Shown here: positions 1-10,689 of the stretch, piece after piece
Layout: each line of letters opens with the position of its first letter
Position numbering within the stretch: position 1 is the stretch's first letter
Assembly (NCBI GenBank): GCA_949358305.1
Contig: OX442314.1
Location: forward strand, 45,330,581-45,394,580
DNA from: Strigamia acuminata
Lineage: Eukaryota > Arthropoda > Chilopoda > Geophilomorpha > Linotaeniidae
Length of the DNA: 64,000 nucleotides
Direction: 5' to 3'
Made by a program: the position numbers and the translations under genes
The notes under the pieces: model-generated
What the model saw: only the letters and a program-made list of their open reading frames with translations
Databases searched by the model: none
What the model was told of the DNA's origin: nothing

Positions 1-210
1 TAAAGTAGGTAGTGCAGTACCAGAAGAAGAACAAACTTTCAAAGTTGAAATTGCAGTAGCAGGACATGCTTGATAAGTATAACCTGCAGGACATGTTTGT
101 AAAGTAGGTAATGCAGTACCAGAAGAAGAACAAACTTTCAAAGTTGAAATTGCAGTACCAGAAGGACAACATTCTTTCAAATTTGAAATTGCAGTACCGG
201 AAGCAGTATA
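1..210 (-). repeat. 99-bp coding tandem repeat at window edge
   Basis: The stretch beginning near position 2 recurs at about 101 with period 99 bp, or 33 residues, and then degenerates. The repeat includes a [16 protein letters not shown] segment in the coding frame. It continues off the left edge of the window. Confidence 0.7.
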
Positions 211-3200
211 TGCTTTCACAGTAGAACCAGGAGGAAAATGTGTTCTTAGTTCTGGAAATACTTCCGGTAGAGGACGTGTTTCCACTTGAGGACATGCTTC
301 CGCTTGACGAAATATTTCCACTTGACGACATGTTGGGTCGGTAGGAGGAGCATAATGTGCTTTTAGATCTGGAAATGCTTCCATTTCAGGCTTTGTTTCC
401 ACTGGAAGACATGTTACCACTTGAGGACTTTTTTCCACTCGACGACGTGCTGTCAGTCGACGACGTTTCGGTTGAGGACATACTTCCGTCTGAGGACTTG
501 CTTCAGATTGAGGACATACTTCCTCTTGAGGAAATACTATCTCTTTAGGACATTCTTTCACTCTTGTACGTGCTCTCACTCGACGACGTGTCTTCTGTTG
601 AGGACAAACTTCCGCTTGAGGACAAACTTTCGCTTGAGGACAAACTTCCGCTTGAGGACAAACTTCCGCTTGTGGACAAACTTCCGCTTGAGGACAAACT
701 TCCGCTTGAGGACAAACTTCCGCTTGAGGACAAACTTTCGTTTGTGGACAAACTTCCACTTGAAGACTTATTGGTACTTCCAACTGAGGACAAGTTTGTC
801 GTCGGCGGCGACGTGCTTTCCTACTACGTACTTTTATTTTTGGACATGCTTTCAATTGAGGACAAACTTCTACTCGAGGACAAACTTCTACTTGCGGACA
901 AGCTTCTACTTGCGGACAAGCTTCGACTTGCGGACAAACTTCGACTTGCGGACAAACTTCCACTTGCGGACAAACTTCCACTTGCGGACAAGCTTCCACT
1001 TGGGGACAAGCTTCGACTTGGGGACAAGCTTCGACTTGGGGACAAGCTTCGACTTGGGGACAAGCTTCGACTTGCGGACAAGGATCCACTTGCGGACATG
1101 GTTCCACTTGCGGACAAGCTTCCACTTGCGGACAAGGATCCACTTGAGGACATGGTTCTACTTGGGGACATGGTTCCACCTCGGGATGTGCATTCAATTC
1201 AGAATCTTCATCTTCAGGACAAGAATTTGTGGGTTCGGATTCAAAACCTTCTTGCTTAGAAGCAAAATGTTCCGGTTGAGCACCATTTTCAGACGTGGCC
1301 TTTGCAGGTTCAGAAGAAGAACTTGAAGGTTTAGTGTCATTTCTAGTCGCAGCATCTGCAGGTACAGTACCATTCCCAGAGGAACATTTTGCAGGTTCGG
1401 AAGGAGGACTTGCTGGTTTAGTGTCATCTCCGGTCGCAGCATTTGCAGGTACAGTACCATTTCCAGAGGAAGCTTTTGCAGGTTCGGAAGAAGGATTTGC
1501 TGGTTTAGTGTCATTTCCGGTCGCAGTATTTGCAGGTGCAGTAGCTTTTTCAGTGGCAGAAATTGTAGATTCAGAAGAACTTTCAGGAGCAGTATCATTT
1601 TTAGGCTCAGGAGCAGCGTATTCAAAAGGACTAATAGTTTCAGGAACAATTTTGGGCTCATCGTCGTCATCGTCATCGTCATCATCTTCAGGCTTCTTTT
1701 TTATAAGCCTATCTGGATATATCTTTAAAAAATATTACAACTATTAGAATACAGACTGTTGTCAACAAAAAATAATTTTACCTTGGGTGTTTGAAACTCC
1801 GGATGCATGCTTTTACACGATATCATCTCTGTTGTGATTTTGTCGAATATCGCAAAACCAGCGTCAAATTCCAACTGCTTTCTTGACACTCTGCAATCCT
1901 TTAATTCTAAATAGTCTTTGAGAGGTTCATTTTTCACTTTGAAGCATTCAAAACGAAAAGTGTGGTCTTTCTTTTCGCTCGCTATGACTTTAAAAAAGTG
2001 CGTTGGTATTCCAATTTTTTGCGGGCCCAAATAATCGTACTCCACATACCGCTTACCATCAGTTCCATCTCTGTTAAAGAAAATTCAGAAAGTGAATTGA
2101 ACATGTCTACAAGATACGGAGCCGGATATAGGTGTTGCAAGGCCCCTAAGCACAAAACTGTTTTGCTCCTGCCTCCAAAAAAAAGTTTAATTTTTAAAAA
2201 TCTAAAAAATACACTTATTATTAATTATTATTATCTCATTATATGTATATAATTAAACCCCGGATGTTTATGCAAAATAAAATTCGTTTTACGGGCGTAA
2301 AATATGCACCAAACATTCCATTTTATGCAAAATAAAAATAAAAATATGCACTAAAAATTTTATTTTATGCAAAATAAAAATAAAAATATGCACCAAAAAT
2401 TCCATTTTATGCAAAATAAAAATAAAAATAAGCTAAATAAAAAATTTATTTGAGTGAAATCAGGTGTTAAATAACAACTTAATGCCATTTCAAAGTGTTC
2501 TTGATGTAAATGAATTATAATTACTAATTATAATTTTTCTATTTTTTTATTTTTTTATTTCTTCAAACTTTTTCCAGACACTAATTTAGTATCTTCCCCT
2601 GGTGTCTGTTTTTGGCGAAGTCCTCAGTTTTCCGAACACAAGCATACGTACACAAATAGTGTCTTAAAATAAACACAAAAATTGGTTCATACATGTTACG
2701 TATCGTTAAAAAAAAGATGAAAATCGCCATTCTTTACCTGAAAAATGGCGGTTCATGCATTTATTTCTGATTTTCGGAAAATATGAATTTACACCCAATT
2801 TCGACTTTTTATCGAATAAAAATAATTCCCAGCAATTTAAGCATTTATCCGGGCCTTAATTATAACATTTTTTTATGTAAAATTATGGGATTTTTTCCGG
2901 TGCCCCCCATCGATGAGCAACTGTTTATTTTGCTTATACGTAAATCCGGCCCTGACACGCGGTTCAATTATTATTCAAATGACTTACTGTGGTAAATACA
3001 ACGCTCCGGAGCAGACATAGATATTATCATACTTTGGTATTAAAAACTTGAGATAGTGATACAAATCTTCCCATATGCTCCCATGTGGACCTCTCTCCTA
3101 AAAAAGACCAACCATATAGAAAACAACACAAAACCCCAACGAATAAAATCACCTCCGCTACAATATTAGTAGTCACCAGAGGATTCTCAACATCCGACGC

Positions 3201-9000: not shown

Positions 9001-10689
9001 GGGTCGGGGCCGGGGCCCAAAGCACGGGAAAGTCGCCACCCCGGTGCCCAGGCACGGATGACCGCAAATTGGGGGCGCTCCAGCTCTCCGTGGGTCCACC
9101 TCGGTCCACAGCGTTGATTCCGCTCCGGTTTCCTCGCAGACCGTTTGGTTTTCCGCGTCGGATTCCGGGACTTTCCCGAAAGGCATCGAAGGGTTGTCAT
9201 CGATGTCGTAATCGTCGAAATCGAGACGCTGGGCACTTCTTAGGGGTCCTTTCGGTGGTGGAATCTCTACGGTGCGGAGTTCTACGGTGCGGAGTTCTCC
9301 GGTTATGAAATCCGGGGACAATTGGTTCGCTTGGTCGTATTTGCGTCTCTTGGCGAGATAGTCCGGCTCGGCCTGGTATTCCTCAGAAAATTGGGGCCCA
9401 ACATCGCCGAAATTCTGCGAGGCTTCGTAGTCGATGTCGAAGAGTATCCTCGCGATCCCCTTCTCGGCCCCATGGGCGTATTCGTCTTCGGCCAAGCACG
9501 GGTCCTCAGCGGTGAAGCCCATTGGAGAGGATTCTTCGGTGTGCAGACGTGCGATGACAAAATCCGGCGAACCATCGTACTGGCACGGGCGTCTGACCGT
9601 GCCCAGCCGAGTCGGACGTGCGGGTTCGTGTTGGGGTATGCGAACGTGCCCGGATCCCGGGGTAAAGTCCGGCGAACCCGGCGCAGGTTGCTTCTCGCCG
9701 TCGTACAGGGGACTAGAGTCCGCATAGTCGATGTATTCGGTGCCGCACGGCTCCGGTAGGATGTCATTACCGTATAGGGGCCGCGAAGGGTCTTTCTCGC
9801 CGTCGAACAGCGGGCTAGAGTCACCACCGTCGCTGTAATCGACGCCGCGCGGCCCCGGTGGAGTTTCATCGTGTTGGGGCTGCGAAATTGTGCTTTCGCT
9901 GCCGTATCGGGACCGCGAAGGATCCTTTTCGCCGTCGTACAGGGGGCTATGGTCAGCAGTGTCGATGTATTCTGTGCCACACGGCTCGGGTAGAACTTCG
10001 GCGCCGGATTCGGGCCGCGAAGGGTTTGTTTCACGGTCGTACAGGGGGCTAGAGTCACTAGCGTCGAAGTAAACGGAATCGTTCGGCCCAGGAAAGGTTT
10101 CGTCGCCGTATTGGGGCTGCGAAGAAGGGCCAGGTAGGGTTTCGTTGACGTGTTGGGGCCGCGAAGGGTCTTTTTCGCGGTCGTAGAGTGGGTTAGCGTC
10201 GCTGTCGTCGGTGGTAGACGGCGAAGGTTGGGTTGGGCCGCTGTATTCGGGGTCTTGTTCGCCGTGGTCTCTGCTGGGTGTGGACTCGAAGCGTGGCGGC
10301 GGTAAAAAGAGTAATCCGTATTGTAGACCGCCCTGAACGTCGTCCAAGCCCGATTCGCAGACGCGGGGAGCGGCCGTAGAGTCGTCTAAGCCCGGTCCGC
10401 TGAGACAGGAGGCGTCGGAAGCGTCCGGAGCGTCCGGGGAGAAGAAATCGAGGTTTGGAAGCGGCATGTAAGGTCTGGTTTCATCGTAGATTGTGAAGGA
10501 ATCGTGTAGGCCTGGCAGCGGGGATCTTGGTAGGGGTGGGTCGAAAATGGTGATGGTGGCTCCGGTTTCGTATTCGTCGGGATCGGCTCGTACTCGCATC
10601 ACATTGCGTTTGTTCGTCAAAATGGCTGCGTAGATACTTCCACCAAATGCTGCAGACGATGCTAGTCTGAGCAGGTGGGAATAACTCAT
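6068..10689 (-). CDS. EndoG-fold nuclease-like protein with long repetitive N-terminal region
   Basis: Predicted exons 10689-8221, 6802-6672, 6601-6322 and 6250-6068 give 1020 residues. Donors are PQ|gtaagt and ...CCCAG|gtaaaa, the third is a weaker gttaat, and acceptors are tctcctag, ttcattcag and ttctgtag. Residues 1-30 form a short hydrophobic start (MSYSHLLRLASSAAFGG). Residues 30-700 are acidic and Pro-rich, with five or six SPLYDxEKDPSRP repeats and three exact or near copies of PTYDAGDSGEDFDLT. From about residue 727 the EndoG fold begins: EFNDFLLCYDNQTKQPAW, YSNVVPQ, DKIYVLSGPLYLP, KVAVPSHYFKVI. The DRGH position reads LGRRYRE, so the catalytic His is absent. A Pro-rich tail ends at TGA 6068-6070. 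Intron phases 0/2/0 match the downstream paralogue, supporting tandem duplication. If the third intron is retained, the protein instead ends in a hydrophobic stretch at 6238. Confidence 0.8.
6955..8090. repeat. 21-bp minisatellite in intron 1, with ~313-bp higher-order repeat
   Basis: About 53 copies of the 21-bp unit aaaatgcacttttttggtcag, with a g/a variant (ttgatcag) and occasional 20-bp units. Positions near 7187 and 7500 start a duplicated block of fifteen units about 313 bp long. It lies wholly inside the 1.4-kb first intron of the EndoG-like gene at 6068-10689. Because 21 is a multiple of three, all frames look open, giving false proteins such as MHFFGQK repeats. Confidence 0.95.

What the first reader, a model, noticed from the sequence alone, without database searches (positions are those of the whole stretch)
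1..10689. Tandem pair of EndoG-fold proteins that have both lost the catalytic motif
Two adjacent minus-strand genes share intron phases (0/2/0) and the EndoG fold, yet neither has a DRGH motif or the downstream metal-binding Asn context. The rest of the domain is kept ([11 protein letters not shown] / [20 protein letters not shown] / AVPSHYFKVI). Retention of fold without catalysis in two diverged copies suggests a non-enzymatic role, such as nucleic-acid binding or inhibition of an active nuclease.
Basis: partly seen in the sequence, partly recalled or inferred. Interest (0 to 1): 0.75.

Follow-up and report, generated by a model that had tools for sequence, protein, structure and literature searches.

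The report
Centipede family of dead mitochondrial nucleases
Two neighbouring centipede genes are copies of the mitochondrial DNA-cutting enzyme EndoG that have lost its catalytic residues, and they belong to a larger family of such dead copies that still carry an EndoG-like mitochondrial anchor, which suggests the enzyme's fold was reused for a job other than cutting DNA.

Summary
Genes A (10689-6068) and B (3812 to 173 bases left of the window) fit exon phases 0/2/0 and match solved EndoG over the whole domain, yet DRGH, the metal-binding Asn and the following Glu are gone. The Asn of the "SN..PQ" motif is kept. The genome is almost certainly the centipede Strigamia acuminata. A hand-made union of three searches gives 66 EndoG/EXOG-type places; G[FY]DRGH occurs at one of them, the canonical EndoG. 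A, B and 12 other assembled paralogues form one clade (100/97): metal Asn and Glu lost in 14 of 14, DRGH Asp replaced by Lys/Arg in 13 of 14, His kept in 8 of 14. All 14 have an anchor like the host EndoG's and splice sites fitting its phases. Linkers of 34-682 residues lie between anchor and domain. dN/dS of the dead domain is 0.31 in the one unsaturated pair. Best reading: a radiation, of unknown age, of mitochondrial pseudonucleases, probably non-catalytic scaffold or binding proteins, like the dead sperm leucyl-aminopeptidases of Drosophila. Location and role are inferred: no structure, expression or localisation data were obtained.

The parts
8221..10689 (-). Gene A exon 1: N-terminal anchor MSYSHLLRLASSAAFGGSIYAAILTNKRNVMRVRA, 682-residue acidic Pro-rich linker, first half of the EndoG domain up to YSNVVPQ
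6672..6802 (-). Gene A exon 2 (phase 0 in, phase 2 out), helix region where EndoG has its metal Asn and Glu; both lost
6322..6601 (-). Gene A exon 3, second half of the domain (AVPSHYFKVI...IFRNI), phase 0 out
6068..6250 (-). Gene A exon 4, Pro-rich tail ending ...ILEF*; depends on the weak GTTAAT donor
3153..3812 (-). Gene B exon 1: anchor [38 protein letters not shown], 52-residue linker, first half of the domain up to TTNIVAE
2988..3097 (-). Gene B exon 2 (phase 0 in, 2 out)
1782..2070 (-). Gene B exon 3 ([10 protein letters not shown]...IFDKI), phase 0 out
1..1722 (-). Gene B exon 4: 631-residue repetitive tail rich in [12 protein letters not shown] hexapeptides; the stop lies 173 bases left of the window
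8290..8301 (-). Place of the former DRGH motif in A, now REAN (phmmer's alignment is shifted and puts Arg at the His column)
3222..3233 (-). Place of the former DRGH motif in B, now KKMY

Best explanation
A and B are members of a centipede family of pseudonucleases that arose by repeated duplication of a mitochondrial endonuclease G gene. Shown at sequence level: an anchor like the host EndoG's, splice sites fitting its intron positions and phases, the EndoG fold, loss of the metal Asn and the Glu in all 14 assembled members of this clade, and intact reading frames through the domain; purifying selection is shown for one trio. Inferred: the anchor takes them to the mitochondrion, as in EndoG, where the dead domain sits on a long, probably disordered tether and works by binding, not cutting. 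The most likely role (about 0.4 of the total probability) is as non-catalytic scaffold or structural proteins of a specialised mitochondrion, most plausibly in the male germline, in the manner of the dead sperm leucyl-aminopeptidases of Drosophila. The next most likely (about 0.25, the first rival, which shares this core and so overlaps with it) is regulation of EndoG itself by mixed dimers or decoy substrate binding.
For: V and A of the anchor's V-x-A are invariant in 16 of 16 aligned anchors, host EndoG included; 7 acidic against 68 basic residues in 522 anchor residues of 15 proteins. GT/AG sites of phase 0 (intron 1) and phase 2 (intron 2) were sought and found at matching places in EndoG and 14 of 14 paralogues. 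One clade, 100/99 and 100/97. Catalytic columns: metal Asn 0/14, Glu 0/14, Asp replaced by K/R in 13/14, His kept in 8/14, with fly, worm, host EndoG and one host EXOG as positive controls. Profile-profile alignment, 100% probability, E 5.9e-46, placing B's KKMY at DRGH. G[FY]DRGH at one of the 66 listed places. dN/dS 0.31, Fisher p 2.6e-8. Expanded, purifying-selected, partly dead mitochondrial S-LAPs are a precedent.
Against: No expression, localisation or structure was obtained. Two other paralogues (C3_33.476, C3_30.938) keep His, Asn and Glu and could be active, so 'dead' holds for the A/B clade and not for every copy. Purifying selection rests on one closely related trio. In the larger tree the host EndoG groups with fly and worm EndoG (94/99) and 11 of 23 inner branches are open, so descent from the host's own gene rests on anchor and introns, and anchors and introns of other animals' EndoG were not compared. 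Linkers with many Cys, which would suit a sperm structural protein, are not general (20.6% Cys in one linker, under 7% in the other 13). The anchor could in principle be read as a secretory signal.
Confidence: 0.65

Rival explanations
1. The copies regulate active EndoG: they pair with it as inactive partners, or hold its substrate, and so set when mitochondrial DNA is cut. (Shares the pseudonuclease core of the best explanation, so the two confidences overlap.)
For: Same kind of anchor and fold as EndoG, so the same compartment is likely. EndoG degrades sperm mtDNA in Drosophila and worms (passages). A dead paralogue that pairs with its active enzyme is known in trypanosomes (prozyme, start of the abstract in the listing).
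Against: Dozens of places for one regulator is more than needed; the linkers vary from 34 to 682 residues; conservation of the EndoG dimer surface was not tested.
Confidence: 0.25
2. The site has been rebuilt: in the His-keeping clade the sequence [KR]-x-[QE]-H-x-A-[EA]-x-x-x-[HR] binds a metal differently and keeps some catalysis or gains metal-dependent binding.
For: His at the DRGH position in 8/14, one group (90/91, 84/73); Glu at +3 in 7/8 and His at +7 in 7/8.
Against: The +7 His is already present in the host EndoG, so only the Glu is new. A and B lack the His at the DRGH place, so this cannot explain them. The EndoG metal Asn and Glu are absent.
Confidence: 0.07
3. The proteins are secreted (for example venom or gut proteins) and the N-terminus is a signal peptide.
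For: A hydrophobic stretch near the N-terminus in all 14; centipede venoms have recruited many gene families (start of an abstract in the listing).
Against: In most of them the stretch is followed by a basic segment (KWRR-like), and it matches the host's own EndoG N-terminus.
Confidence: 0.08
4. They are decaying gene copies without function.
For: Tandem clusters, long simple repeats, three genome matches with several internal stops.
Against: 14 of 14 assembled copies have open exons and GT/AG sites through the domain; dN/dS 0.31, p 2.6e-8 in the closest pair.
Confidence: 0.04

Closest known systems
Endonuclease G (EndoG, CPS-6, CG8862)
   Same: Whole domain by sequence; anchor and intron positions like the host's own EndoG.
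   Different: DRGH, metal Asn and Glu lost in all 14 clade members; long linkers added.
Nuclease-like domain of ENPP proteins
   Same: A member of the same fold whose inactivity is recalled and comes from no call; the family profile matches ENPP1 chains weakly (4.7e-4 to 9.7e-4).
   Different: ENPP is a secreted or membrane phosphodiesterase with the domain appended (recalled); here the domain comes straight from EndoG and spread over many genes.
Three EndoG-like proteins found with the family profile (P0012, P0014, P0016), the first named by its source as from a planctomycete
   Same: His of RGH replaced by Arg and the metal Asn by Arg, so other inactive-looking relatives of this fold exist.
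   Different: They keep RG and the Glu; whether they have an anchor or linkers was not studied.
Sperm leucyl-aminopeptidases (S-LAPs) of Drosophila
   Same: Expanded family derived from an enzyme, its largest group with a lost active site, purifying selection, structural parts of sperm mitochondria (abstracts and two sections).
   Different: A different enzyme; S-LAP tissue and location are proven, those of this family are not.
EXOG
   Same: Same superfamily; the host has two EXOG-type loci with SRGH, one of them used in the alignment.
   Different: Different N-terminal sequence; His, Asn and Glu kept in the one aligned.
Trypanosome prozyme
   Same: Dead paralogue of an active enzyme; a model for the regulator rival (start of the abstract, listing).
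   Different: Unrelated enzyme; proven heterodimer.

Membership tests
DNA/RNA non-specific endonuclease fold (PF01223) | Profile score above the curated cut-off | tested here: met
   B 58.4 and A 59.6 bits against 23
Active EndoG | DRGH with its general-base His | tested here: not met
   B KKMY, A REAN; in phmmer's alignment A's residue at the His is Arg
Active EndoG | Metal-ligand Asn and following Glu | tested here: not met
   A Ser/Phe, B His/Tyr; 0/14 and 0/14 in the clade
EndoG lineage (descent, not activity) | N-terminal anchor, intron positions and phases of the host EndoG | tested here: met
   introns 1 and 2 only, and other animals' EndoG not compared
EndoG lineage (descent, not activity) | All 22 assembled copies form one clade apart from host, fly and worm EndoG and EXOG | tested here: inconclusive
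   14-gene clade 100/97; all 22 together not rejected, p-AU 0.47, but not shown
EndoG | Three-dimensional fold and dimer | not tested
EXOG | SRGH-type motif and closer match to EXOG than EndoG | tested here: not met
   best EndoG 4.8e-27 (B) and 2.8e-23 (A) against best EXOG 8.8e-16 and 4.9e-14; for A some vertebrate EndoG chains score below EXOG
S-LAP-like dead sperm mitochondrial enzyme (works-like) | Testis expression and sperm mitochondrial location | not testable with these tools
   no RNA or protein data available
S-LAP-like dead sperm mitochondrial enzyme (works-like) | Expanded family, lost active site, purifying selection | tested here: met
   selection in one trio only

The most novel reading that the evidence does not exclude
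A centipede lineage turned its mitochondrial DNA-degrading enzyme into a large, fast-evolving set of mitochondrial pseudonucleases, with intermediates at several stages of active-site loss in one genome. The set may be a structural or regulatory system of sperm mitochondria tied to paternal mtDNA elimination.
Probability: 0.3. Interest if true: 0.8.

Novelty: new variant of a known kind. Interest (0 to 1): 0.6.

Why it matters
EndoG is a mitochondrial nuclease linked in flies and worms to removal of paternal mtDNA. One genome holding a canonical copy, partly degraded copies and fully dead but selected copies, with the same kind of anchor and introns, is a natural series for asking what a nuclease fold does once it stops cutting. 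It also warns that annotation by domain would be expected to call many genes here endonucleases, although at least the 14 of this clade should not cut.

Tried and rejected
Alternative exon restoring DRGH: none in 1-10800. Chance or assembly error: disfavoured by whole-domain matches, open exons with GT/AG sites in 14 of 14 and purifying selection in one trio; the published assembly QV is 59.6. A second DRGH copy near C1:40.37: a DRGHLA pattern match 3.5 kb away was fetched and read, and lies in a 34-residue frame with no EndoG similarity that I could see.

Relatives outside this genome: one search gave two weak hits. One search gave 33 EndoG-like hits; 24 of the 33 hold DRGH, and of the other 9, three have VRGR/IRGR, one SRAH, and five are fragments or lack the region in the stretch I printed. 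Neither search could find the long members, because candidates are limited to 0.55-1.75 times the query length. No COX1 hit above 86% identity was listed (best 120 of 7999), so S. maritima is probably not in that database (inference). No other centipede genome was searched, so neither absence elsewhere nor the age of the radiation is shown. Papers: none on dead EndoG families was seen (15 of 202 listed), which cover open-licence papers only.

Not all copies were read. Of them 25 were read as exon sets: 14 clade members, 8 others, EndoG and two EXOG. C1:36.206 was seen exon by exon but not joined, and was left out of the trees; so were L011, L032 and L033. C6 copies were read by eye in first exons only. 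About 13 of the 21 C8 places were not fetched. Three of the 66 carry several stops and may be chance or debris. The patterns would miss a DRGH that has neither G[FY] before it nor an aliphatic/Phe codon and Ala after it.

P0001 and P0002, used in the tree, were dropped from that in favour of fly and worm EndoG and host EXOG.
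Full report
What is in the window. Gene A runs from 10689 to 6068 and gene B from 3812 to 173 bases beyond the left edge, both on the minus strand. Each has an N-terminal hydrophobic and basic segment, a linker (682 and 52 residues), an EndoG-type domain split over three exons, and a low-complexity tail, with introns that fit phases 0/2/0. A's third donor, GTTAAT, is weak. B's 631-residue tail is built largely of [12 protein letters not shown] hexapeptides. The domains pass Pfam's cut-off and match solved EndoG structures along their length, the best of them better than EXOG. 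A profile of six family members finds fly EndoG at 4.4e-48.

Catalytic residues. In alignments with the host's own EndoG and with fly and worm EndoG, DRGH becomes KKMY in B and REAN in A, the metal Asn becomes His and Ser, and the Glu becomes Tyr and Phe. A profile-profile comparison, made by another program, also puts B's KKMY at DRGH. phmmer places Arg, not Asn, at A's His column, so the exact residue in A is uncertain, but none of these alignments offers a His.

The organism. TTAGG arrays cap the first contig (a TTAGGG 30-mer is absent). The COX1 gene is nearest to centipedes (86% to Mecistocephalus, 84% to Bothropolys), with horseshoe crabs close behind at 83-84%. The first contig is 66,985,994 bases, exactly the longest scaffold of the published Strigamia acuminata assembly (PMC10556566; I read parts 1 and 2 of 3). 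The held genome has 237,517,015 bases in 157 contigs; the paper gives 237,534,282 in 158, so the versions differ slightly. The window then lies on chromosome 1.

The family. A hand-made union of the exon-3-type matches of three searches gives 66 places: 21 on C6, 21 on C8, 16 on C1, 5 on C3 and one each on C4, C10 and C12 (from; three with several stops). A whole-genome pattern for G[FY]DRGH gives six matches, one of them at these places, the canonical EndoG on C3. A second pattern, DRGH followed by an aliphatic or Phe codon and Ala, gives 17, again one at these places; one lying 3.5 kb from a copy was read and looks like chance. The two EXOG-type loci carry SRGH. Fourteen genes, A and B among them, were assembled as spliced domains. 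GT/AG sites of phase 0 for intron 1 and phase 2 for intron 2 were sought in EndoG and these 14 and found in all 15, and the frames are open; a third, phase-0 donor near the end of exon 3 is visible in most, but not in the host EndoG or C1_36.23. The 14 form one clade (100/99; 100/97 with other rows). In these 14 the metal Asn and the Glu are absent in 14, the Asp of DRGH is Lys or Arg in 13, and the His is kept in 8, which group together (90/91; 84/73). A conserved basic residue at the former Asp suggests that the site was re-shaped and is not merely decaying (inference).

Intermediates. Eight other copies on C1, C3 and C8, joined by eye, carry the same kind of anchor (E from 6e-10 to 0.01) and show mixed losses: His kept in 3 of 8, metal Asn in 5 of 8, Glu in 7 of 8. 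Two, C3_33.476 (IKCH) and C3_30.938 (TKGH), keep all three and may be active. A tandem cluster on C6 has 13 distinct frames with a recognisable anchor at E up to 0.05, and by eye the first exons that I read there lack the DRGH region. Whether all copies form one clade apart from other animals' EndoG is not settled: the data do not reject it (p-AU 0.47) and do not show it. In that tree the host EndoG sits with fly and worm EndoG (94/99), and 11 of 23 inner branches are open. Descent from the host's own EndoG therefore rests on the anchor and the introns; those of other animals' EndoG were not compared. The age of the radiation is unknown.

Anchor. The host EndoG begins MSRLRLIYVASAGIGGCFCGSVLEKWRNNSFKVHAG, and the paralogues begin in the same way, ending in V-x-A. 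Across 15 anchors there are 7 acidic and 68 basic residues in 522. This is the make-up of a mitochondrial pre-sequence with a membrane segment (recalled, no predictor was run). That EndoG is mitochondrial is established knowledge; that these paralogues are is inferred.

Selection. Only one pair is unsaturated: C1_36.21 against C1_36.22a, dS 0.41, dN 0.13, ratio 0.31, Fisher p 2.6e-8; the two other pairs of the same trio agree but are more diverged. Their linkers are 179 and 443 residues: ends conserved, middle free.

Mechanism. Shown: descent from an EndoG-type gene, loss of the catalytic set, preserved fold by sequence, preserved anchor, purifying selection in one trio. Inferred: mitochondrial location and action by binding. 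[quoted passage not shown] PMC6388916: abstract). EndoG itself degrades sperm mtDNA in flies and worms (PMC10990420 and PMC11554256, passages) but is dispensable for this in mice (title and passage). These are analogies. No tissue or localisation data were available, so the germline part is the weakest step.

Known or new. The fold, EndoG, and dead members of enzyme families are known. The inactive nuclease-like domain of ENPP proteins is a recalled precedent, and the family profile touches ENPP1 weakly. Three proteins of the database search also lack the RGH His and the metal Asn. A radiation of EndoG pseudonucleases in a centipede was not seen in six literature searches; the word 'endonuclease' does not occur in the held main text of the Strigamia maritima genome paper (term search). 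I rate it a new variant of a known kind.

Noticed in passing
3948-5921: AT-rich minisatellite of 31-bp units, about 64 copies, between genes A and B, with a 364-bp higher-order repeat.
   Followed up: no
6962-8080: 21-bp minisatellite, about 54 copies, filling most of intron 1 of gene A.
   Followed up: no
45761-46465: Open frame with a basic helix-loop-helix domain (PF00010, 5e-18), neurogenin-like by eye.
   Followed up: partly
30580-41036: Three long minus-strand frames with C2H2-like zinc-finger matches, all below Pfam's cut-offs.
   Followed up: partly
L014/L015 (C1:36.206-36.211): A further A/B-type gene whose DRGH region is replaced by an acidic stretch and whose second exon lies at the end of a repeat-rich open frame (PTEPCVP-like) listed at 1370 codons.
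   Followed up: partly
L009, L012, L015, L016, L017, L019, L029: His-keeping paralogues gain Glu at +3 (7/8) beside His at +7 (7/8), an H-x-x-E-x-x-x-H pattern that could bind a metal.
   Followed up: no
P0012, P0014, P0016 (database proteins, not in the window): EndoG-like proteins with VRGR/IRGR for RGH and Arg for the metal Asn, one named by its source as planctomycete: possibly another dead branch of the fold.
   Followed up: partly
L011 (C1:29.34): BTB/kelch-like open frames next to an EndoG-type copy, recognised by eye.
   Followed up: no
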